From Bacteroidota bacterium (GTDB lineage: Bacteria; Bacteroidota; Ignavibacteria; UBA10030): a stretch of 35,350 nucleotides of DNA. Below are positions 12,074-24,736 of this stretch, piece after piece; positions within the stretch are counted from its first letter, which is position 1; every line of letters starts with the position of its first letter. The notes under the pieces are model-generated. The model saw only the letters and a list, made by a program, of their open reading frames with translations, was not told where the DNA came from and did no database searches. Both the position numbers and the translations under genes were made by a program. The stretch is taken from assembly GCA_017882185.1 (NCBI GenBank), contig JADGQA010000008.1:1-35350 (forward strand), given 5' to 3'.

Positions 12074-13162
12074 ATGAAAAAGAGAATCATCATTTCCTCC
12101 GTCGCTGTATTTGCAGTCGCAGGCGCCGCTGTCGTCTTTTTTGGCAGCGCAAAATCCACCAAGGAGAATGACCTCCCCAAGGTGAAGGTCGAACGAGGAA
12201 CTATCATTGACAAGGCGCTTGCCGTGGGAACGATCGAGCCGGAATTTGAGATTTCTGTGAAATCGAAAGTCTCCGGCGTTGTCAAGAAGATTTTTGCCGA
12301 CGCCGGAACATATGTGCGGGCGGGGAATCCTCTGCTCGAGGTAAAACCTGACCCTGCCCCAATTGAGCTTGCTGATGCAGAACGGCAGGTACAGCTTGCC
12401 GATGTCGAGATGGAGAATCTGTCGAAAGAAAAAGTCCGTGAGGAATCGCTTATGCAGAAGGGGCTGATTTCGCAGAAGGAGTATGAAAGTTTCCAAAGCT
12501 CGTACGAAAATGCCGACCTGCGGCGCAAGATAACAAAAGAGAAACTTGAGCTTCTGCGGAGTGGTAAAGTGAGAATTGAAGGAAAGGATATCGAATCTGT
12601 GATCCTTGCGCCGATCGACGGATATGTTTTGAAGAAAATGGTGGAGGTGGGCGATCCTGTTGTCCCCATTGCATCATTTTCTGAGGGAACGGTATTGATG
12701 AAGATGGCAAACATGGAGCAGCTCATTTTCAAAGGAACGGTGGATGAGATCGATGTCGGAAAGCTCAAGGAAGGCATGGAAGCAGAGTTGAAGGTCGGGG
12801 CTTTGCCAAACGATACCGTTCACGGAACGCTGCGACAAATATGGCTCAAAGCGGAGAAAAAAGAAAATGCCACCGTCTTCCCCATCGAGATTTTGATTCC
12901 ACGGACGGGTTCAGTGACATTGCGGGCAGGCTACTCTGCCAACGCCAGCATCATCATTCAGAAGAAGACTGACGTACTTACCATCCCGGAACGGGTTGTA
13001 ACATTCAAGCAGGATTCCACTTCAGTCATGGTTGCCTTGGCATTGAGGGATGAAATGCGGCTAATCAAAACCGGGTTGAGTGACGCAATCAATGTCGAAG
13101 TATTGTCAGGTTTAAGAGAAGGCGAGGAAGTAAGAGAGAAACCGGTCAAAAAGATTGACTAG
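12074..13162 (+). CDS. MacA-like periplasmic adaptor (HlyD/MFP family)
   Basis: This 362-residue adaptor of an ABC-type efflux or lipoprotein-handling system has an N-terminal membrane anchor at 5-25. A barrel-sandwich strand follows (KVERGTIIDKALAVGTIEPE, then VKSKVSGVVKKIFADAGTYV). A helical hairpin covers about 100-162 (DAERQVQLADVEMENLSKEK) and the returning lipoyl half contains ILAPIDGYVLKKMVEVGDPV. The beta-barrel and membrane-proximal domains run to the end (TIPERVVTFKQDSTSVMV). The length is typical of MacA relatives. TGAGGATA is at 12060-12067, six bases before the ATG. The two permease genes follow at 80 and 36 bases, so an operon is likely. Substrate is unknown. Confidence 0.85.
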   Translation: MKKRIIISSVAVFAVAGAAVVFFGSAKSTKENDLPKVKVERGTIIDKALAVGTIEPEFEISVKSKVSGVVKKIFADAGTYVRAGNPLLEVKPDPAPIELADAERQVQLADVEMENLSKEKVREESLMQKGLISQKEYESFQSSYENADLRRKITKEKLELLRSGKVRIEGKDIESVILAPIDGYVLKKMVEVGDPVVPIASFSEGTVLMKMANMEQLIFKGTVDEIDVGKLKEGMEAELKVGALPNDTVHGTLRQIWLKAEKKENATVFPIEILIPRTGSVTLRAGYSANASIIIQKKTDVLTIPERVVTFKQDSTSVMVALALRDEMRLIKTGLSDAINVEVLSGLREGEEVREKPVKKID

Positions 13163-13242
13163 TGGATGACGGTACAGGCCCTGTCACTCCGGAGGGTCTT
13201 GCCTCGCTGTTCATTTGATATTCGTAAGTCATAATTTCTGTC

Positions 13243-14478
13243 ATGGACTATTTTCGAACCATACTATCCGAATTCATCGTCGACTTGAAAGCTCAGAAGC
13301 TACGCGCGTTTCTGACGACGTTTGGAATCATCTGGGGAACCGTTGCCATCATCGTGCTTATCGGATTTGGAATCGGATTCAAGAAACAGACCGCGGCCAA
13401 TATGCACGGACTTGGCGAAAGTATTTCGATCGTGTGGCCCGGCAAGACGACCAAACCCTACCAGGGATTTAACAGCGGCCGTTCTCTCTCGTTTCTCGAG
13501 GATGATATCGATCTCCTCCGGAGTCGGCTACCCGAGATCGCGGTCATCAGTGCAGAGTACACCAGAGGAAATACTCCTGTCCGCCTCGGCGACAATATTC
13601 TCAATCCTGGAATCACAGGGATCTATCCACAGTATGGCAACATCAGGAACATCAATCCGGCCGCCGGCGGCAGGTTCATTGACGATTTGGACATCCAGAG
13701 TCGCAAAAGGGTTGCCGTTCTCGGAGACGAGGTCAAGACTTTTCTCTTTAAGGATCGGCCAGCTGTGGGTGAAGTTGTGTACGTGGGTGATGTCCCCTTT
13801 ACCGTTATCGGCGTCATGAACGCCAAAACGCAACCCTCCTCGTACAACACCAGGGACAAGGATCGAATCTTCATCCCGGCGACCACGTTTTCAGCGGTCT
13901 TCGGAACAATCCATCCCACGAACTTTGTGTTCAAGCCTGTCGATCCGACCAGATCGGAAGAGGTGGGCAAAAGGGTGCGGGAAGTCTTGAGCACACGTTA
14001 TAAATTCGATCCGAAGGACGAAGATGCGATATGGATTTGGGACACAGCCGAGTTCGACAAGTTCAGTTTCTATCTTTTTCTCGCCATTAATATTTTCCTG
14101 GGCCTCATTGGAAGCTTCACCCTTGGTGTTGCCGGACTGGGCGTTGCGAACATTATGTTTATTGTCGTCCAGGAACGGATCAAGGAAATAGGCGTCAAAA
14201 GGGCAGTCGGCGCCAAAAAGCTTAATATCATGATCCAATTCTTCACTGAAACTTTTTTCATCATTCTCCTTGGCTCGTCAGTTGGATTCCTGATTGCTTT
14301 TGGGATAATCCAAGTCGTACAACTTCTGCCGATCAAGGAATATGTTGGGACACCACAGATGTCGTGGGAGGTTCTTGCTGTGACCGTGAGCGTTCTCGCC
14401 ATCGTGGGTCTCTCGGCCGGACTTATGCCAGCCCGTCGCGCGGCGAACCTCGATGTCGTCGATTGCTTGCGTACCTAA
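13243..14478 (+). CDS. MacB-like ABC permease, first copy (no ATPase domain)
   Basis: This is a 411-residue FtsX/MacB-type permease. TM1 lies at about 22-48 (GIIWGTVAIIVLIGFGIGFK). A long periplasmic MacB_PCD domain follows (about 50-270) with NPGITGIYPQYGNI and KRVAVLGDEV. Three C-terminal helices complete it, with the coupling segment FIVVQERIKEIGVKRAVGAK between TM2 and TM3 and the usual PARRAANLDVVDCLRT ending. E. coli MacB carries its ATPase at the N-terminus; here it must be supplied separately. It lies 80 bases after the adaptor gene. No strong ribosome site precedes the ATG, so translation may depend on a weak site. Confidence 0.88.
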   Translation: MDYFRTILSEFIVDLKAQKLRAFLTTFGIIWGTVAIIVLIGFGIGFKKQTAANMHGLGESISIVWPGKTTKPYQGFNSGRSLSFLEDDIDLLRSRLPEIAVISAEYTRGNTPVRLGDNILNPGITGIYPQYGNIRNINPAAGGRFIDDLDIQSRKRVAVLGDEVKTFLFKDRPAVGEVVYVGDVPFTVIGVMNAKTQPSSYNTRDKDRIFIPATTFSAVFGTIHPTNFVFKPVDPTRSEEVGKRVREVLSTRYKFDPKDEDAIWIWDTAEFDKFSFYLFLAINIFLGLIGSFTLGVAGLGVANIMFIVVQERIKEIGVKRAVGAKKLNIMIQFFTETFFIILLGSSVGFLIAFGIIQVVQLLPIKEYVGTPQMSWEVLAVTVSVLAIVGLSAGLMPARRAANLDVVDCLRT

Positions 14479-14514
14479 ATCACTCGTTCGGAAATTGCCG
14501 ATCGGAAATCTCCT

Positions 14515-15756
14515 GTGTGGTTTGAACTCTTAAAAGACTTCTATCGTGACCTCAAGACCAATCGCTTGCGGGCAATACTGACCCTCGTTGCGTTGACTTG
14601 GGGAACTATCTCAGTCGTTCTGCTCCTCGCATTCGGAGAGGGTCTGGGCCACCAAATGTCGGCGGGAATGATGAACGCGGGAGATCGAATCATGATCGTA
14701 TACGGCTATCAAACTGGGCTGACGTATGAGGGCCTTCCCAAGGGACGCCGGATACGGCTTGTGGAGGAAGACGTCGATTTATTGGAGCGGGCAATCTCTC
14801 AAATCGATATGGCGAGTCCCCAATATCGGAACAATGTGACGCTGACGTACGGAAGCTATTCCACCACAACGGAGTGCGAAGGTGTAAATGCATCATTCGA
14901 GGACATGCGGCGAATGTATCCGGTTGGTGGAGGGCGATTTTTGAATGATGCTGATGTATCGGAAAGTCGTCGCACCATTTTTCTTGGAGTCAAGATTGCG
15001 GAAGACATCTTTAGTTCGGCAAACCCAATCGGCAAGGTACTCACCGTGGACGGAATTCCGTTCACCGTCGTGGGGATCATGCAAAAGAAGGTCCAGACCG
15101 CGATGAACAACGGACCGGATGCCAATCGCGCAATTATTCCCTACACAACATTTCGAACGATGTACGGAAATCAGTATGTGAACACAATCGTCGTCCGACC
15201 TCGCGACCCCAGCAATCAACCTCTCGTAAAAAGCGAAATCTACAGGGTACTCGGAAGAAAGTATCACTTTAATCCAGACGACGACAGGGCACTTCGTATG
15301 TGGGATTTTATTGAAGCCCAGAAGATCGGAGAAAAAGTGTTCCTTGGTATCCAGATTTTCCTTGGATCGATTGGCTTCCTCACCCTTCTGATAGCCGGTG
15401 TTGGAGTAGCCAATGTCATGTATGTGGTTGTCAAGGAACGCACAAAAGAGATTGGCATCAAACTCGCGATTGGTGCCAGGAAACGCTATATCCTCTCCCA
15501 GTTTATCTTCGAAGCTCTCCTGATTTCGTTGATGGGCGGAGGAATTGGCATTCTGTTTTCTTGGGGGATTGTCAGTCTGATGCACACATTTCCGGCCGAA
15601 GAAGGGGCAATGCAGTTCCTGGGGCGTCCCATCCTGTCCACCAACATCATGATTCTAACTTCAAGCATCCTCACGGCAATCGGACTCGCCGCCGGAATAT
15701 TTCCCGCCCGGAAAGCGGCAAGCGTCGACCCCGTCGAATCACTCCGGTACGAATAG
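14515..15756 (+). CDS. MacB-like ABC permease, second copy (no ATPase domain)
   Basis: This 413-residue paralogue of the upstream permease has the same plan: TM1 around 20-42 (LTLVALTWGTISVVLLLAFG), a MacB_PCD periplasmic domain with ECEGVNASFEDMRRMYPVGG and the SRRTIFLGVKIAEDIF element, then three helices. The coupling segment is VVVKERTKEIGIKLAIGARK, and PARKAASVDPVESLRYE ends the protein. The start is GTG at 14515, 36 bases after the first permease, and no better start lies nearby. Two different permeases side by side suggest a heterodimeric transporter. No ATP-binding subunit gene lies between 10.9 and 19 kb. Confidence 0.87.
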   Translation: MWFELLKDFYRDLKTNRLRAILTLVALTWGTISVVLLLAFGEGLGHQMSAGMMNAGDRIMIVYGYQTGLTYEGLPKGRRIRLVEEDVDLLERAISQIDMASPQYRNNVTLTYGSYSTTTECEGVNASFEDMRRMYPVGGGRFLNDADVSESRRTIFLGVKIAEDIFSSANPIGKVLTVDGIPFTVVGIMQKKVQTAMNNGPDANRAIIPYTTFRTMYGNQYVNTIVVRPRDPSNQPLVKSEIYRVLGRKYHFNPDDDRALRMWDFIEAQKIGEKVFLGIQIFLGSIGFLTLLIAGVGVANVMYVVVKERTKEIGIKLAIGARKRYILSQFIFEALLISLMGGGIGILFSWGIVSLMHTFPAEEGAMQFLGRPILSTNIMILTSSILTAIGLAAGIFPARKAASVDPVESLRYE

Positions 15757-16279: not shown

Positions 16280-17179
16280 ATGTCTGCATTACCTTCTGCT
16301 CATTTCAATTGGTGTAACGTGTTTCGAATCCTCGAAAAGAACGACTTAGCCGCAAAAGTATGTCGCTATGTAATTGCTGCACCCGATGTCGCAAGAAAAG
16401 CGAAGGCCGGGCAATTTATCATACTGCGACTCTACGATGACGGAGAGCGAATTCCGATAACGCTCGCCGACTGGGATGTCGAAGCGGGCACCATCACCCT
16501 GTATATTCAAGCCGTCGGCAAGACGACGATCATGTTGAGCATGATGAAAGCCGGGGACGCACTGATGGATATCGTCGGCCCTCTCGGCATTCCGAGCCAT
16601 GTGGAAAAAGGGAAGACTCTCGTAGCCCTCGGGGGCGGATTTGGCATAGCAGCGATCCATCCAGTCGTGAGAGCGCACAAGCTGATAGGAAACCGCACAA
16701 TCTCCATTATTGGGGCAAGAACGAGGAATTTGATGTTGATGGAGAAGGAAATGGGCGCCATCTCCGATGAAGTACGAATCGCGACCGATGATGGGAGCTA
16801 TGGCACGAAGGGTTTTGTCACTACGATACTCAAGAAAATGCTCGAAGAGAAGGAACAAATGGATGTCGTCCTTGCAATCGGACCGGTAGTGATGATGAAA
16901 GCTGTTGCCGACCTTACACGACCATATAGGGTTCAAACACTGGTCAGCCTCAATCCCATTATGATGGATGGTACAGGGATGTGTGGCGCATGCCGCGTCG
17001 TCGTCAACGACAAAATGCAGTTTGCGTGCGTCGACGGCCCGGAATTCGATGCCCATCATGTTGACTTCGAACTGCTCACGGCAAGACAGAAAATGTATTC
17101 GCCTCAAGAGAAACTTTCGATGGAGATATTCGAAAAAATCTGCAAAACCCAGGAACAGCGCGAGACTGCGGCGTGGTAA
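16280..17179 (+). CDS. nfnA: NfnA: FAD/NAD-binding small subunit of the NfnAB transhydrogenase
   Basis: NfnAB couples reduced ferredoxin, NADH and NADP+ by flavin-based electron bifurcation. This 299-residue subunit has the ferredoxin-reductase-like FAD domain (KAGQFIILRL, then RIPITLADW at 57-65), an NAD-binding domain (LVALGGGFGIAAIHPV) and a C-terminal [2Fe-2S] site. The cluster ligands D230, C235, C238 and C250 (DGTGMCGACR ... FACVDGP) have the same 5-3-12 spacing as in characterised NfnA. A related annotation is sulfide dehydrogenase beta subunit (SudB); the adjacent large subunit fits both. The chosen ATG gives 13 residues more than most relatives; the GTG at 16319 (VFRILEKN) is an alternative start. 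The large subunit gene follows 63 bases later. Confidence 0.85.
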   Translation: MSALPSAHFNWCNVFRILEKNDLAAKVCRYVIAAPDVARKAKAGQFIILRLYDDGERIPITLADWDVEAGTITLYIQAVGKTTIMLSMMKAGDALMDIVGPLGIPSHVEKGKTLVALGGGFGIAAIHPVVRAHKLIGNRTISIIGARTRNLMLMEKEMGAISDEVRIATDDGSYGTKGFVTTILKKMLEEKEQMDVVLAIGPVVMMKAVADLTRPYRVQTLVSLNPIMMDGTGMCGACRVVVNDKMQFACVDGPEFDAHHVDFELLTARQKMYSPQEKLSMEIFEKICKTQEQRETAAW

Positions 17180-17242
17180 CGTCGAAGCGGAACAACAGAG
17201 GAAAAACTGAATCCGAAACATCGTAAATCGAGTCAGACGATT

Positions 17243-18691
17243 ATGGGCAACGAAGTGAACATTGCAGCACCGAGGAAATTGACCAACAAAGATCGGATGA
17301 AGATTCCAAGGCATCCGATGCCCGAACAGAATCCTCTGGAGCGCGCAAAGAATTTCCTGGAAGTCCCTCTTGGGTACACGCCTGAGATGGCAATGGAGGA
17401 AGCTGAACGATGTCTCCAATGTAAAAAACCAAAATGTGTCGAAGGATGTCCGGTAAATGTGAAAATCCCGGAGTTCATCTATCACACGGCAATGGGCAAT
17501 TTCGAGCTGGCTGCTCAGACGCTCAAAGAAACCAATGCGCTTCCGGCAGTGTGTGGGCGTGTCTGTCCCCAAGAAGAGCAATGCGAAGTTGTGTGTACGA
17601 TTGGCGCAAAAGTCGAACCCGTCGCTATTGGAAGACTCGAGCGTTTTGTTGCGGACTGGGAGAGGTCTTCCGGCAAGATCAACATTCCGGAGATATCTCC
17701 TTCGACCGGTCGCAGAATCGCTGTGATTGGTGCCGGCCCCGCGGGACTAACGGTAGCAGGCGACCTTGCCAAGCTTGGTCATTCCGTTACGATATTCGAA
17801 GCCCTCCACAAGGCGGGCGGGGTTTTGGTATATGGCATTCCAGAATTCAGGTTGCCAAAGAAGATCGTGGAGGCAGAAGTAAATTACCTCGAACGTCTTG
17901 GCGTGCAAATCAGGTGCGATTTCGTCGTCGGTATGACACGGACAATTGATGAGCTTATGACACAGGAAGGATTCGATGCCGTATTCATCGGAACGGGTGC
18001 AGGATTGCCCTATTTTCTTGGTGTGCCTGGTGAGAACTTGAATGGGGTCTATTCGGCCAATGAATTCCTGACCCGCGTCAACTTGATGAAAGGGTATCAC
18101 TTTCCGAACAATGCGGATACCCCAATTCCAATGGCGAAGCACGTTGCCGTTATTGGTGGCGGAAACACTGCAATGGATGCTGCGCGGACGGCTCGTCGGT
18201 TGTCGTGGACGGAGAAAGTCTACATCGTGTACCGTCGATCTCATGTCGAAATGCCGGCACGCAAGGAGGAGATTCACCACGGAGAACAAGAAGGCATCGA
18301 GTTTCTGCTTCTGACCAACCCGACACGTTTCATAGGCAAGGATGGTTGGCTTATTGGTATGGAATGCCAACGCATGGAACTTGGCGAGCCTGATGCTTCG
18401 GGTCGCCGGAAACCGATCCCGATTGCAGGCAGTGAATTCATTCTCGACGTTGAATCGGCTATTGTTGCAACCGGCAATGGTTCAAATCCGCTGATAAACA
18501 AGACAACACCTGGACTTCAGTCGAACAAACACGGCAACATTATAGCGGACGAAGAAGGCAAGACTTCCCGTGAAGGTGTCTGGGCCGGAGGCGACATTGT
18601 CATTGGCGCCGCGACAGTCATCAAGGCGATGGGTGCGGGGAAGAAAGCAGCGAAATCGATACACGAATACGTAATGAAAAAGTCAGGATGA
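17243..18691 (+). CDS. nfnB: NfnB: GltD-like large subunit of the NfnAB transhydrogenase
   Basis: This 482-residue protein is of the family often labelled homotetrameric glutamate synthase GltA or GltB small subunit. No glutamate synthase large subunit is adjacent, and the partner is NfnA, so NfnB is the better call. The N-terminal Fe-S domain has C57-C60-C65-C69 (RCLQCKKPKCVEGCP) and C104-C108-C114-C118 (AVCGRVCPQEEQCEVVC), enough for two [4Fe-4S] clusters. The FAD motif GAGPAG is at 153-158 and the NADPH motif VIGGGNTAMDAARTARR lies near 300. The C-terminal GVWAGGDIVIGAATVIKAMG closes the FAD domain. It is cytoplasmic and bifurcates electrons through its own FAD. ATG at 17243; the ribosome site is weak. 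Confidence 0.9.
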   Translation: MGNEVNIAAPRKLTNKDRMKIPRHPMPEQNPLERAKNFLEVPLGYTPEMAMEEAERCLQCKKPKCVEGCPVNVKIPEFIYHTAMGNFELAAQTLKETNALPAVCGRVCPQEEQCEVVCTIGAKVEPVAIGRLERFVADWERSSGKINIPEISPSTGRRIAVIGAGPAGLTVAGDLAKLGHSVTIFEALHKAGGVLVYGIPEFRLPKKIVEAEVNYLERLGVQIRCDFVVGMTRTIDELMTQEGFDAVFIGTGAGLPYFLGVPGENLNGVYSANEFLTRVNLMKGYHFPNNADTPIPMAKHVAVIGGGNTAMDAARTARRLSWTEKVYIVYRRSHVEMPARKEEIHHGEQEGIEFLLLTNPTRFIGKDGWLIGMECQRMELGEPDASGRRKPIPIAGSEFILDVESAIVATGNGSNPLINKTTPGLQSNKHGNIIADEEGKTSREGVWAGGDIVIGAATVIKAMGAGKKAAKSIHEYVMKKSG

Positions 18692-19239: not shown

Positions 19240-22179
19240 ATGAGAAGGTTTCTACAGGCTTGTTCTGTCTTGATGCTCATTTCTTTGCTACTGGCCGTAC
19301 CTGTTCTAGCACAGGTCGCGAAAATCGTCGTCAATGGTATCCCTGACAGGTACAAAAGTGCAAATTCGGGCCAAGTCACATCAGGTCTCAAAACAGTCGC
19401 CGTCGGAAGTCGTGTTGTCCTTTCCCCACTTATCTATTCCGGTCAGGGAACGAAGTACTCTGATGCCCTCGTCTCTGTGACAAGTGCGAATTGGTCCCTT
19501 ACCGTTGTTCCAATTGGTTCAACGGCAGCCATTGCGGACACTGCAGCAGGACTTAGCGGTAAAGTGGTTTATTTCGTTGCCGATTCAGCTGGCACCTATA
19601 CGATATCCATGACACCTACTCCAAGTACTTCACCGGCTACAGTGACACTGAATATCCTTGCCACAACTTATGTTGGTTCCGGAATAAACGTCGCACGCGC
19701 TTCAAGCGGCAATCCGGTCACATGCGATCCCTGTCATCGTGGAGGATTGGCTCAGAATTTCATTGATTGGCAATCAACCAATCACGCTCAAGCCGTCAAA
19801 AGAAAAGCGAATGAGGTCGGAGGTCATTTTGATAAAAAGAACTGTTTTTCCTGCCACGCCATCGGGGCCACCGGTCTCCCAACCCATAAAAACAACGGGT
19901 TCGATGATATGGCTTTACTGGAAGGTTTCCCAATCTCCATCCTGCCTGATACCATCGGAAAATATGATACACTCGCGGCAAAATATCCGAAATCGATGGC
20001 AACAACCGGAATTCAGTGTGAGAATTGCCACGGTCCTGCCGGCGCGCACGCCGCCGTAATAGCGGGTCAAGATCCGAAAAGCAAGCTTGACGAATCACTC
20101 TCCAACGCTCCATGCGATCAATGTCACTTCTCAACTGACCGTCACGGCATAGGTTACGCATGGACGGGTTCAGCTCACGCAAACGCGCCGGGCTCAGGAT
20201 CGAAAGTTCAGAATATGGATCGATTCCCTTGCGCGAAATGCCACACTGCTCAAGGATACATTTACAGCACAATGGGCGGCCAAGCGGTACCGAACAACGC
20301 GGGCAGCGTCGTGAGCTATGATAATCCAATGCCCGTCGGTTGCGTCACTTGCCACGATCCGCACAAGAACAACAATCCGACCATGGTTGAAACCGGTTTG
20401 ACCAATAAAGGTGCCTACACCTATCCTCAGTTGCGTGTCAACGATATCGGCGATGCATGCTTAGGTTGTCACCAGACGCGCATTAGCAGTAGTGGCCTTC
20501 ATGAAGCGCACCAGGGCTCGATGCTGATAGGCGCGAATGCCACTTCTTTTGGATTGGCAAACATAAAGGCTTACCGGGCGAATTCCTTGGATATGTCGAC
20601 CAACGTCGGGCTTTGGTCCGGTTGGGAATTCCCTGGTTATGTGTATTCCAATTCTTCCCACAGCAATATCAAAGAGCGCTGTGTGACATGCCACATGGCC
20701 CCATCTCCATCGAACCTCGCGGCCCAAGCAGTCAGCTATGCGATTCCTGATACGATGTTGAACAAGTTGGGTGGACACACGTTTAGAGTTGCATACACAG
20801 CTCCGGGCGATAGTGTGCCGGTGCTCAACCCAACCGGTTGCAAAGAATGTCACGGGACCGTCACGCTCGACTTCGTAGAATTGACGCAGACGAAGACGAA
20901 GTATCTCCTGACAACCCTGGCAACATTCTTACCAAAGCGCGATTCCGTAGGAACAGTGATTTCGTTCCAGGACACTGTTGCTTATCAGAACTGGAAAAAT
21001 TCTGCAACGTACGGCTATCTCAAGCGCGCATTGACCACCGCCGAACTCGCAGCCGCATACAATTATCAGTTTGTAAGCAATGACGGCAGTTTTGGAGTTC
21101 ACAACTTCAAATACACAGAGGAACTCCTGAACTCATCGATCGAACAACTGCAGCTAGGTGCGGGAACGGCCAGTATTGTGCAAATCAGGGATGTGCCGGG
21201 CGACAACGGAAAATCAGTACAGGTGGTATGGAACAAATTCCCGGCTGAAAATGCTGGCTACAATCGACTGACGAGTTACGGTGTCTGGAGGCAGGATCCT
21301 TTGCTTCCTGCAACCGGCAGTTCGGCGAGTCGATTCAACTCGTACACAGAAATGATTAAAGGAGGCACCGTCGGGAATCAGTACGTCATGGGAGCCTCCG
21401 TGTGGACGTATATTGCATCGGTTCCGGCTTCGAATCTAGCGCAGTACTCCTACATTGCTCCGACGTTGTTCGATTCGACAAAGACTGTAGGCATGAAGTA
21501 TTCAGCATTCTACATCTCTGGATATACTTCTGATCCGACGTACGTCTACAAGTCTCCGGTGGACAGCGGGTATTCGCTGAACAACCTGTTCCCATTGGCA
21601 CCGTCGAGCGTTGCAGCAAAATCGAATGCTCAGGGAATCACGTTAACGTGGGATCCTCCGACACAACGTGACATCGATGTTGTGCAGTACGTAATTTATC
21701 GCGGGACCTCAGCCAACTTGACGCCGACGTCGCCTCTGACCACCGTGAAGCTCGTAACGACATACCTCGATGCATCCACCACTTTGGGATCGACGTACTA
21801 CTACAAGATTGCAGCAATCGACAATGCCGGCAATGTTGGCGATCTTTCGAACGTAATCAGCCTGAGAGCAACCGATGTTGAAAAGATCGCCGGATTGCCG
21901 ACAGACTACAACCTGGAGCAGAATTATCCGAATCCGTTCAATCCGACCACTCAGATAGGATTCTCCCTGCCGAATGCGTCATTTGTAAAAGTTGGGATCT
22001 ACAATGTGTCTGGAGAACTCGTCCGCACACTCGCGAACGATGTGATGTCGGCTGGGATTTACCGATTTACCTGGAACGCAACGGACAATCAGGGGCGGAG
22101 CGTCAGCAGCGGCGTCTACATTTACCGTATCCAGGCTGATAAATTCGTCTCTTCAAGGAAGATGTTACTCCTGAAGTAG
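19240..22179 (+). CDS. Nine-haem c-type cytochrome with Fn3 and T9SS sorting domains
   Basis: This is a large extracytoplasmic electron carrier. From the ATG at 19240 (GGAGGG four bases upstream) it has 979 residues: a signal peptide at 1-24 ending VLAQ, an Ig-like beta domain (about 50-145), then nine CXXCH haem sites starting at residues 162, 202, 260, 292, 331, 368, 407, 481 and 534. Many other histidines could serve as distal ligands. A conserved segment (FVSNDGSFGVHN at 611-622) follows, as in NrfA-like and octahaem cytochromes. A fibronectin III domain covers about 787-876 and a type A T9SS sorting domain 892-979 (EQNYPNPFNPTTQI, SSGVYIYRIQADKF, MLLLK end). It should therefore be exported across the outer membrane and attached or released. 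The gene at 22610 encodes a paralogue; each has its own terminator. Confidence 0.92.
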   Translation: MRRFLQACSVLMLISLLLAVPVLAQVAKIVVNGIPDRYKSANSGQVTSGLKTVAVGSRVVLSPLIYSGQGTKYSDALVSVTSANWSLTVVPIGSTAAIADTAAGLSGKVVYFVADSAGTYTISMTPTPSTSPATVTLNILATTYVGSGINVARASSGNPVTCDPCHRGGLAQNFIDWQSTNHAQAVKRKANEVGGHFDKKNCFSCHAIGATGLPTHKNNGFDDMALLEGFPISILPDTIGKYDTLAAKYPKSMATTGIQCENCHGPAGAHAAVIAGQDPKSKLDESLSNAPCDQCHFSTDRHGIGYAWTGSAHANAPGSGSKVQNMDRFPCAKCHTAQGYIYSTMGGQAVPNNAGSVVSYDNPMPVGCVTCHDPHKNNNPTMVETGLTNKGAYTYPQLRVNDIGDACLGCHQTRISSSGLHEAHQGSMLIGANATSFGLANIKAYRANSLDMSTNVGLWSGWEFPGYVYSNSSHSNIKERCVTCHMAPSPSNLAAQAVSYAIPDTMLNKLGGHTFRVAYTAPGDSVPVLNPTGCKECHGTVTLDFVELTQTKTKYLLTTLATFLPKRDSVGTVISFQDTVAYQNWKNSATYGYLKRALTTAELAAAYNYQFVSNDGSFGVHNFKYTEELLNSSIEQLQLGAGTASIVQIRDVPGDNGKSVQVVWNKFPAENAGYNRLTSYGVWRQDPLLPATGSSASRFNSYTEMIKGGTVGNQYVMGASVWTYIASVPASNLAQYSYIAPTLFDSTKTVGMKYSAFYISGYTSDPTYVYKSPVDSGYSLNNLFPLAPSSVAAKSNAQGITLTWDPPTQRDIDVVQYVIYRGTSANLTPTSPLTTVKLVTTYLDASTTLGSTYYYKIAAIDNAGNVGDLSNVISLRATDVEKIAGLPTDYNLEQNYPNPFNPTTQIGFSLPNASFVKVGIYNVSGELVRTLANDVMSAGIYRFTWNATDNQGRSVSSGVYIYRIQADKFVSSRKMLLLK

Positions 22180-22231
22180 GCTGTGCACAAATCCACTTGG
22201 ATTTCCTTCAGGTGGGATCAAATGCCTAACG

Positions 22232-22265
22232 TGCCCGCGAGTGCACCGTTCTCACGGGCATTTCT
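22232..22265 (+). terminator. Rho-independent terminator of the first cytochrome gene
   Basis: TGCCCGCGAG (22232-22241) pairs with CTCACGGGCA (22251-22260), nine of ten positions, with a nine-base loop, followed by TTTCT. It lies 53 bases after the stop codon. Its sequence resembles the terminator after the second cytochrome. Confidence 0.65.
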
Positions 22266-22609
22266 ATCTGGTGCCAAATCCGAGCCTAGGTCCCGAAAGC
22301 CAAGAGTTGAAAGGCTTGCGCGGTTGAAGTTCTTGTTTCCCAACTTGAGGAATTCTAGGAATTTAAGACCTACAAATGATAATGTTGACAAATTCAGCGC
22401 ACAAGAATCTTCGAAATTGATTAGATTTTCAACGCGGCTGATTCCGCTTGACAGGCACGAGATTTGTCGCAATTTAGGCGTTCAAGCGTGATCCAAAGGG
22501 AACGGCTGAATGTCAAACAAGTAGTGTCAAGTCGTTTTCCGAATACAAACGACGAACATTGATTTTCTGCGGAGTATCAGAAGACAATTATTGAGGAAAG
22601 GAACTTGAA
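22266..22609. other. Intergenic region between the two cytochrome genes
   Basis: No gene is supported. Two TTGACA boxes occur, at 22385-22390 and 22448-22453, but neither has a convincing -10 at 16-18 bases. TGTCAA appears twice near 22511-22530. GAGGAAAGGA just before 22610 is the ribosome site of the next gene. A promoter for the second cytochrome must lie here if the upstream terminator works. Confidence 0.4.
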
Positions 22610-24736
22610 ATGAAGCGTTTAGCGACAATTTATACCTGCTTGTTTCTTGTCGGTATTGTCTGGACACAATCGCTTGCACAAATCGTAGAAATTGTACGAG
22701 ATGCACGATCCGACAGAACGAGAGACATCTCCGGTACATCTTGGCAAGTGAATAGCGGCTTGCGAGTCGTCGGAAAAGGTTCCACTGTTTATCTTTTTGC
22801 GGACACAACAGGCTCAGGTGCGGCAGCGGTAACATCATTTGCTTGGACTTTTCTTTCGCAACCAACAGGTTCGAACTCAACATTCTCAAATTCATCGGGG
22901 ATGAACACTAAGTTCATGCCCGACAGTGTCGGTCAGTATATCGTCCAAGTAACCGTAAACGGTTCAAAGACTGAACAGGATACAATATTCGCGAGCACGT
23001 ACGTTGGCGTTGCTAATAAATTCCCGTCATGCGGCTTTGTGTCCGCTTGCCACGGCGACAAATTAACAAGTTATAGTGGAACAGCCCACGCCAAAATATT
23101 CTCCCAAGGCATAACGGGTCAATTGGAAGTCAATACTGCTGGTAAGGGCACTTATTCACCGGTTTGCACCAAATGCCATACGACTTCTGGCGACCCTCTG
23201 CTGAATAACGGCAATTTCGGGTACCTAGCACATCAAACCGGCTGGGACACAACCTGGTATAAGCCCTACACAAAAAGCGGAATTTCCTATCTCATCCCCT
23301 ATCAGGACTCCACGGCATACAAGCAACTGACGACGACGCCAGCTTATTCCTCGATGGCGGGATTGGCGACAATCGGATGCGAATCCTGCCACGGACCTGG
23401 CGCAAACCACATGGGGGACGCAACAAAAATTGGAAAAACGTATGATGCTGGTGTATGCCAGACCTGCCACGACGCGCCACCTCACCACACGAAAGGAACG
23501 GAATGGACTCGCTCGGGACACGCAACGTGGGAAATTGGAAAAGTTGATGCCAATCGCATCAGTTGTTTCCCGTGCCACAGCGGAAGTGCATTCGCGAAGT
23601 GGATTGACGCCGGGAGAGTCACGAAAGTCAACAACGTTTCAATCTACGATACCTCGACAGTTCGTGGTCGCCCGTCACCCACAAGCGACATCGGGATGGC
23701 TCTTACGTGCGCAGCCTGCCACGATCCTCACAGTGCGGCCAACCTGCATCAATTACGGACGGTCGATGTCGATTCACTCAATAACGGTTATCAAGTTCCG
23801 GCGAGTTCGCAGGTCGGCGGTATGGGTCAGCTTTGCATGAATTGCCACCGTTCGCGTTATAATGTTGCAGCGAAGGTCAAATCAAACTCTGCCCCATATT
23901 ATGGATTTGCGGACCATTATGGCCCCCATGGCAATCCACAGGCTGACATGTACTTCGGTCGAAATGCCTGGCAGTATGGCGACTCCTCACTTACCGGTCT
24001 CGCCACACATCTCGGCGTCACCGATGCGTGCGTCACGTGCCATATGCCTGATGGTAATCACGAATGGTCCATGGTCGATTCGCTCGGTAATGACAAGGTC
24101 GCCGCATGTCAAACGTGTCACGGCCAAGGCATCACCAAGTTCACCGATATCATGGCTTCGTTTGACTACGACCACGACGGCAAGATTGAACCCGTCCAGA
24201 CAGAAGTTGAGGGATTGCTTGCTCAGCTCAAAGCCGGATTACCGATCGACGTAACCACGGGAGAGCCAACGCTCGCGATGAAGGACAGCCTCTTGGTGAA
24301 AGGAAACCTCAAGACAGTCGCAGATATATATGACTACACGTTCGTGAAGAATGATGGGAGCATGGGTGTGCACAACACGAAATATGCCGTATCGATTTTG
24401 CAGAAGGCACTCGGCTACTATCCGACCTATGTCAACAAGGTCGAACAGAAGCTTCCCACCACGTACGAGCTTGGTCAGAATTATCCAAATCCATTCAATC
24501 CAACGACGACCATCAGCTTCTCCGTGCCAAAACAGGAATATGTCGTTCTTGTGATCTATGATATGCTTGGCAAAGAGGTGAACAGGCTTGTCGATGGACA
24601 AATGAGTGCAGGCACCTTCAAGGCGACCTGGCGTGGAGATACTAAGAGTGGCGAAAAGGTTGCCAGCGGCGTGTATTTCTACAGACTGCAAGCAGGATCG
24701 TTTACCGCCGTCAAGAAGATGTTGATGTTGAAATAA
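22610..24736 (+). CDS. Multihaem c-type cytochrome with T9SS sorting domain and one CX5CH site
   Basis: This 708-residue paralogue of the 19240 gene has a signal peptide at 1-24 (LVGIVWTQSLAQ), an Ig/PKD-like domain at about 50-118, and eight CXXCH sites at 186, 257, 283, 319, 367, 409, 474 and 500. At 141-148 it has CGFVSACH, a CX5CH, where the paralogue has its first CXXCH. The remaining sites correspond one to one between the two proteins, and the FVKNDGSMGVHN segment is also shared. An acidic EF-hand-like loop (DYDHDGKIEPVQ, 519-530) follows the last haem; its twelfth position is Gln rather than Glu. The T9SS domain is 617-708 (GQNYPNPFNPTTTI, SGVYFYRLQAGSF, MLMLK end). The Fn3 domain of the paralogue is absent. 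AGGAAAGGA precedes the ATG. Predicted surface electron carrier. Confidence 0.92.
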   Translation: MKRLATIYTCLFLVGIVWTQSLAQIVEIVRDARSDRTRDISGTSWQVNSGLRVVGKGSTVYLFADTTGSGAAAVTSFAWTFLSQPTGSNSTFSNSSGMNTKFMPDSVGQYIVQVTVNGSKTEQDTIFASTYVGVANKFPSCGFVSACHGDKLTSYSGTAHAKIFSQGITGQLEVNTAGKGTYSPVCTKCHTTSGDPLLNNGNFGYLAHQTGWDTTWYKPYTKSGISYLIPYQDSTAYKQLTTTPAYSSMAGLATIGCESCHGPGANHMGDATKIGKTYDAGVCQTCHDAPPHHTKGTEWTRSGHATWEIGKVDANRISCFPCHSGSAFAKWIDAGRVTKVNNVSIYDTSTVRGRPSPTSDIGMALTCAACHDPHSAANLHQLRTVDVDSLNNGYQVPASSQVGGMGQLCMNCHRSRYNVAAKVKSNSAPYYGFADHYGPHGNPQADMYFGRNAWQYGDSSLTGLATHLGVTDACVTCHMPDGNHEWSMVDSLGNDKVAACQTCHGQGITKFTDIMASFDYDHDGKIEPVQTEVEGLLAQLKAGLPIDVTTGEPTLAMKDSLLVKGNLKTVADIYDYTFVKNDGSMGVHNTKYAVSILQKALGYYPTYVNKVEQKLPTTYELGQNYPNPFNPTTTISFSVPKQEYVVLVIYDMLGKEVNRLVDGQMSAGTFKATWRGDTKSGEKVASGVYFYRLQAGSFTAVKKMLMLK

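What the first reader, a model, noticed from the sequence alone, without database searches (positions are those of the whole stretch)
19240..24736. Pair of multihaem cytochromes addressed to the type IX secretion system
Seen: two paralogous proteins with a signal peptide, an Ig-like domain, nine aligned haem sites and an intact T9SS sorting domain. Known: the sorting domain sends proteins across the outer membrane in Bacteroidota. Inferred: haem-loaded cytochromes would reach the cell surface without a porin-cytochrome conduit, a route for extracellular electron transfer unlike the Shewanella or Geobacter systems. Whether haem is attached in the periplasm before T9SS transport, and how electrons reach these proteins, is open.
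Basis: partly seen in the sequence, partly recalled or inferred. Interest (0 to 1): 0.8.

Follow-up and report, generated by a model that had tools for sequence, protein, structure and literature searches.

The report
T9SS-tailed surface cytochromes plus membrane conduit
Two neighbouring genes in an uncultured Ignavibacteria-type bacterium encode nine-haem electron-carrying proteins that carry a type IX secretion address, belong to a class-wide family, and most likely work as cell-surface electron outlets fed by a pore-and-cytochrome wire encoded elsewhere in the same genome.

Summary
A (19240-22179) has nine CXXCH; B (22610-24736) has eight CXXCH plus one CX5CH. Both have a Sec signal peptide, an Ig/PKD-like domain and a TIGR04183 sorting tail over cut-off. 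The genome encodes SprA (split across two contigs), PorU, PorV, PorX and 79 tails. The haem module is related to OcwA, the nonahaem surface reductase of Thermincola potens (PDB 6i5b, E 2.5e-21). Nine haem sites, nine further histidines and counterparts of OcwA's open-site histidines are conserved. Full-length relatives occur in 149 of 293 genomes of the class.

The claim 'without a porin-cytochrome conduit' fails. The genome encodes a chain on C323/C265/C327: cytochromes b561/b6, Rieske, multihaem cytochromes, barrel-like protein, 14-haem cytochrome, 5-haem lipoprotein. In relatives, A- or B-type genes sit in that same cluster, and 146 of 149 positive genomes carry the barrel-like protein.

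Best reading: OcwA-like terminal reductases, haem-loaded in the periplasm, exported folded by T9SS and fed by the conduit: Shewanella's MtrC/OmcA plan with exporter and cytochrome family exchanged. Surface location, electron flow and substrate are inferred. No held paper joins multihaem cytochromes to T9SS. New variant of a known kind.

The parts
19240..22179 (+). Protein A, 979 aa: signal peptide (about 1-24), Ig/PKD-like domain (about 50-145), nonahaem OcwA/NrfA-like module (162-640, nine CXXCH), extra mainly beta segment (about 640-880), T9SS type A sorting tail (896-979)
19723..20853 (+). Nine CXXCH haem sites of A, first to last
21925..22167 (+). T9SS sorting tail of A (TIGR04183, 40.9 bits)
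22610..24736 (+). Protein B, 708 aa: signal peptide (about 1-23), Ig/PKD-like domain (about 50-130), nonahaem OcwA/NrfA-like module (141-600), T9SS type A sorting tail (625-705)
23030..23053 (+). Variant first haem site of B, CGFVSACH (CX5CH), residues 141-148
23165..24121 (+). Eight CXXCH haem sites of B, first to last
24482..24721 (+). T9SS sorting tail of B (TIGR04183, 41.9 bits); Foldseek matches SprA-bound NucA, RemA and RemZ tails

Best explanation
A and B are two anciently diverged subfamilies of OcwA-like nonahaem c-type cytochromes that act as extracellular terminal reductases (electron outlets to minerals, humics, electrodes or shuttles). Shown by sequence: Sec signal, nine conserved haem sites, conserved distal histidines, T9SS tail, T9SS outer-membrane components, and a quinol-to-outer-membrane cytochrome chain in the same genome and in the same gene cluster in relatives. 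Inferred: haem is attached in the periplasm, the folded holoprotein is recognised by its tail through PorV/SprA and processed by PorU, and it then sits at the surface. Electrons run from quinol (b561/b6/Rieske) through 13-, 19-, 11- and 6-haem cytochromes and a 4-haem c554-like carrier to the barrel/14-haem/5-haem-lipoprotein conduit, and from there to A or B. It works like Shewanella's T2SS-exported MtrC/OmcA on an Mtr conduit, with both the exporter (T9SS) and the terminal cytochrome family (OcwA/NrfA type) exchanged.
For: Tails over cut-off and 79 tails in the genome; SprA; PorU; PorV next to PorU and PorX next to SprA. Profile to PDB 6i5b E 2.5e-21, 6qvm 1e-17, NrfA 1e-13, octahaem nitrite reductase 3e-12; 6i5b is the OcwA structure and its pocket pairs HH281/282 and HH380/381 align with B HH292/293 and H440. 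Nine non-motif His conserved in 30-32 of 32 sequences. Single same-strand runs: B-13h-19h-b561-6h-(Rieske)-b6-11h-4h-barrel-14h (L099, L100); A-type-13h-19h-b561-6h-Rieske-b6-11h-barrel-14h-5h (L148); B-4h-barrel-14h-6h (L145); B-barrel-14h (L146); also near each other in L147 and L149/L150. Co-occurrence 146/149 against 41/144, Fisher p 1e-40; stratified by family z 5.7. T2SS precedent for MtrC/OmcA; folded T9SS transport. Modelled tail matches SprA-bound cargo tails.
Against: No experiment: surface location, haem loading and electron flow are unproven. In this genome A/B lie on a different contig from the conduit, beside NfnAB-like genes, so any coupling here is in trans. 41 genomes have the barrel without a detected full-length relative of A/B. 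The AlphaFold models are poor in the haem core (pLDDT below 50 at B 255-487), so fold and ligand geometry were not tested. OcwA and NrfA relatives also reduce nitrite and hydroxylamine, so a soluble-substrate role is possible. GldM search uninformative. The barrel call rests on a sub-threshold Pfam hit, signal peptide and gene order.
Confidence: 0.7

Rival explanations
1. T9SS-exported cytochromes replace a porin-cytochrome conduit: they receive electrons by a route that does not cross a barrel.
For: In this window A and B stand apart from any other haem gene; three positive genomes lack a detected barrel homologue.
Against: Conduit-like cluster present in this genome and linked to A/B types in relatives; 146 of 149 positive genomes have the barrel. 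The three exceptions are draft assemblies, so absence there is not firm.
Confidence: 0.08
2. Surface or secreted nitrogen/sulfur oxyanion enzymes: relatives of NrfA, octahaem nitrite reductase and MccA that reduce nitrite, hydroxylamine or sulfite outside the cell.
For: Sequence matches to NrfA, octahaem nitrite reductase and weakly MccA; pocket histidines kept at the positions of OcwA's two open haems; OcwA itself reduces nitrite slowly and acts on hydroxylamine.
Against: No CXXCK catalytic site; closest match is a surface terminal reductase, not an enzyme; recurrent clustering with an outer-membrane electron conduit, which a periplasm-accessible soluble substrate would not need.
Confidence: 0.14
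3. Periplasmic or freely secreted electron reservoirs or carriers; the tail is used for attachment or is vestigial.
For: No direct localisation evidence; many haems suit charge storage.
Against: Tail motif present in 30 of 32 relatives checked; 79 tails with PorU/PorV present make export functional by inference.
Confidence: 0.08

Closest known systems
OcwA, Thermincola potens (PDB 6i5b, PMC6703420)
   Same: Nine haems, c554-like front half and NrfA-like back half, C-terminal helical segment, pocket histidines over haems 2 and 5 at aligned positions, surface terminal reductase
   Different: OcwA is from a Gram-positive cell and is not described with a T9SS tail; here there is an added Ig/PKD-like domain, a T9SS tail, one more conserved His, and B's haem-1 motif is CX5CH
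MtrC/OmcA of Shewanella exported with T2SS (PMC1974784)
   Same: Works alike: surface multihaem reductase, delivered across the outer membrane by a secretion system, fed by a barrel-cytochrome conduit
   Different: MtrC/OmcA are a different cytochrome family and use T2SS; A/B have no lipobox and use a T9SS tail
Porin-cytochrome clusters of Ignavibacteria (PMC7399161)
   Same: Barrel plus multihaem cytochromes in Ignavibacteria genomes
   Different: The word 'secretion' does not occur in that paper's main text; a T9SS-tailed nonahaem partner is not described there
Nonahaem relatives of OcwA from Gram-negatives (PMC7829351, Fig. 7A cluster IV.A)
   Same: Shows OcwA grouping with nonahaems from Gram-negative bacteria, so the haem module itself was seen before
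   Different: No sorting tail, exporter or conduit linkage reported in the passages read
T9SS type A cargo (NucA, RemA, PorU)
   Same: Same C-terminal sorting domain, matching SprA-bound cargo tails by Foldseek
   Different: Known cargo are enzymes and adhesins; no multihaem cytochrome cargo found in the held literature

Membership tests
T9SS type A cargo | N-terminal Sec signal peptide | tested here: met
   Sequence by inspection: LLAVPVLA|QVAK and VWTQSLA|QIVE; no prediction program run
T9SS type A cargo | C-terminal TIGR04183 domain at the very end of the protein | tested here: met
   40.9 and 41.9 bits, cut-off 23; ends at the last residues
T9SS type A cargo | Genome encodes SprA, PorU, PorV | tested here: met
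   SprA halves at contig ends C179/C244, PorU 857.8 bits, PorV 278.7 bits over its cut-off of 250
T9SS type A cargo | Genome encodes motor GldL/GldM and GldK/GldN | tested here: inconclusive
   Only GldM model TIGR03517 tried: no match, but it rang in no control genome either
T9SS type A cargo | Export abolished without T9SS | not testable with these tools
   needs mutants
OcwA-like nonahaem cytochromes | Sequence relationship to OcwA over the haem module | tested here: met
   Profile of 17 sequences to 6i5b, E 2.5e-21, best of all PDB chains
OcwA-like nonahaem cytochromes | Nine haem sites | tested here: met
   A nine CXXCH; B eight plus CX5CH, aligned at site 1
OcwA-like nonahaem cytochromes | Histidines over open haems 2 and 5 | tested here: met
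   By alignment only: B HH292/293 on OcwA HH281/282; B H440 on the HH380/381 pair; A has a single His at the first position
OcwA-like nonahaem cytochromes | OcwA/NrfA fold and haem packing | tested here: inconclusive
   Models of both proteins unreliable in the haem core
OcwA-like nonahaem cytochromes | Cell-surface location and reduction of iron oxides or electrodes | not testable with these tools
   needs protein or cells
OmcA/MtrC surface decahaem lipoproteins | Match to TIGR03507 and a lipobox | tested here: not met
   TIGR03507 not among hits of A or B; no lipobox; only the MtrC/MtrF domain II/IV model PF22113 is marginally passed
NrfA nitrite reductases | CXXCK catalytic haem of most NrfA | tested here: not met
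   All sites end in CH
Porin-cytochrome conduit (cluster on C265, not A/B) | Outer-membrane barrel with periplasmic and outer multihaem partners in one operon | tested here: inconclusive
   Gene order barrel-14h-5h lipoprotein clear; barrel nature rests on sub-threshold PF13505 and no PDB relative

The most novel reading that the evidence does not exclude
A widespread, undescribed arrangement for extracellular electron transfer in double-membraned bacteria: OcwA-type terminal reductases delivered folded and haem-loaded through the T9SS translocon, docking on or near a barrel/14-haem/lipoprotein conduit, with two ancient subfamilies (A and B) and a relaxed first haem motif (CX1CH, CX2CH, CX3CH, CX5CH) in the same family.
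Probability: 0.55. Interest if true: 0.72.

Novelty: new variant of a known kind. Interest (0 to 1): 0.62.

Why it matters
If true, the type IX secretion system is a delivery route for respiratory surface cytochromes, not only for enzymes and adhesins, and about half of the sampled genomes of this class would carry such a surface terminal reductase. It also puts the OcwA type, known from a Gram-positive, into a double-membraned cell with an identifiable electron feed, so the question of how haem proteins reach the surface in Ignavibacteria becomes testable in cultured relatives such as Melioribacter or Ignavibacterium.

Tried and rejected
Structure prediction of A and B with 13-17 row alignments: haem core below pLDDT 50, so not used for the haem fold; only the tail and Ig domain of B were used. 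GldM model: rang nowhere, uninformative. PDB search with the barrel-like protein: nothing. Literature searches joining cytochromes with T9SS found nothing relevant. The promoter and terminator scan was at chance level. First idea, that the downstream tailed protein in some relatives (L030-L036) is a haem-less paralogue, was dropped: the one in L033 weakly matches an M6 metalloprotease model and the one in L036 is a phosphodiester glycosidase/golvesin-type protein, so they share only the tail. Other tailed proteins of the genome that matched A (C119, C120, C177) have no haem sites.

Full report
Setting. The window is contig C82 of a 3.64 Mb, 352-contig, 96.5% complete assembly. Close relatives found by sequence are metagenome-assembled genomes labelled Ignavibacteria, Ignavibacteriales or 'Bacteroidetes', so I place the organism in the class Ignavibacteria, by inference.

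Observation. A has nine CXXCH sites. B has eight plus CGFVSACH, a CX5CH, at the aligned first position. Shuffled proteins give about 0.01-0.02 sites each. Signal peptides are plain Sec type by inspection. Sorting tails pass TIGR04183 (40.9 and 41.9 bits, cut-off 23). The N-terminal domain is Ig/PKD-like. A also has an extra segment of about 240 residues, modelled as mainly beta strands with low confidence, before the tail.

Secretion system. The genome carries 79 TIGR04183 tails, SprA in two halves at contig ends (C179 and C244), PorU on C25 (857.8 bits), PorV next to PorU (278.7 bits) and PorX next to SprA. The GldM model found nothing but also rang in no control genome, so the motor is unresolved. 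The modelled tail of B matches SprA-bound NucA, RemZ and RemA tails and the PorU tail.

What the haem module is. A profile of 17 relatives finds PDB 6i5b first (E 2.5e-21), then 6qvm, NrfA and octahaem nitrite reductases. 6i5b is OcwA, the nonahaem surface terminal reductase of Thermincola potens. OcwA has open haems 2 and 5 under HH281/282 and HH380/381. With the chain numbering shifted by 29, which fits both pairs, B HH292/293 fall on the first pair and B H440 on the second. In 32 sequences all nine proximal histidines are conserved, and so are nine further ones: eight in all 32 and H293 in 30. Leaving out the two pocket positions, seven remain for the other haems, which fits OcwA's six bis-His haems plus one possible replacement for the Met of its His-Met haem 9; that last step is speculation. 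AlphaFold did not give a usable haem core.

Family. Full-length relatives (E below 1e-80) were found in 149 of 293 sampled genomes of the class. Only three candidates per genome were scored, so this is a lower bound. Of 32 sequences examined 30 carry the tail motif. A simple tree separates an A-type clade, with the longer C-terminal part, from the B-type clade, with further divergent branches, so the pair is an old duplication. Adjacent A/B pairs occur elsewhere (L042), and several genomes list two full-length copies side by side.

Where the electrons come from. The genome contradicts this. Contig C265, minus strand, encodes the 3' part of a 19-haem protein, a b561, Rieske, cytochrome b6, an 11-haem, a 4-haem c554-like protein, a 425-residue barrel-like protein, a 14-haem and a 5-haem protein with a lipobox. 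C323 ends with a 13-haem/b561 fusion and the 5' part of the 19-haem, and C327 starts with a 6-haem NapC-like protein. In two relatives the B-type gene heads the same run on one contig and one strand (L099, L100), and in L148 an A-type gene does so. L145, L146, L147 and L149/L150 show tailed cytochromes beside or near the barrel/14-haem genes; with L100 and L148 these come from families f1, f3, f10, f13 and f23. Across 293 genomes 146 of 149 positive genomes have the barrel homologue, against 41 of 144 others (Fisher p 1e-40; Mantel-Haenszel by family z 5.7). Related genomes are not independent, so the family-stratified figure is the one to trust. In this genome the pair lies on another contig, beside NfnAB-like genes, so here the link is in trans.

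Mechanism. Proposed: quinol is oxidised at the b561/b6/Rieske units; electrons cross the periplasm through the multihaem carriers to the barrel/14-haem conduit and its lipoprotein; A and B, delivered by T9SS, take them at the surface. T9SS is described as moving folded cargo (PMC9251779), and CcmF-like and CcsB-like maturation proteins are encoded, below strict cut-offs, so haem attachment before export is expected. Shewanella is thought to use T2SS in the same way for MtrC/OmcA (PMC1974784). Every localisation and electron-transfer step is inferred.

Novelty. OcwA-like nonahaems in Gram-negatives were noted before (PMC7829351), and porin-cytochrome clusters in Ignavibacteria were reported (PMC7399161). 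I found no paper in the held library that joins T9SS with multihaem cytochromes; subscription literature is not covered. I file it as a new variant of a known kind.

Caveats.

Noticed in passing
window 23030-23053 and loci L118, L119, L121, L124, L126, L128, L129, L138, L140, L141: The first haem motif varies in length within one family: CX2CH in most, CX1CH (CFCH, CICH, CLCH, CVCH) in 9 of 32 sequences, CX3CH in L121, CX5CH in window B. Unusual for c-type cytochromes; haem attachment at this site may need a permissive lyase.
   Followed up: partly
window 16280-18691: Genes resembling the two subunits of NADH-dependent ferredoxin:NADP oxidoreductase (NfnAB-like) directly upstream of A.
   Followed up: partly
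L031, L033, L035 downstream of the B-type gene: A second T9SS-tailed protein of about 720-770 residues follows B; the one scanned (L033) weakly matches an M6 metalloprotease-domain model.
   Followed up: partly
L072:4983-6569 (G000:C65) and L073:3-1172 (G000:C19): Other octahaem proteins in the genome: a tetrathionate-reductase family octahaem over cut-off and a hydrazine-dehydrogenase-like octahaem below cut-off.
   Followed up: partly
L079/L080 (G000:C179, C244): SprA is cut between two contig ends, most likely an assembly break rather than a broken gene.
   Followed up: partly
window 12074-15756: HlyD-like membrane fusion protein followed by two MacB-type permeases.
   Followed up: no
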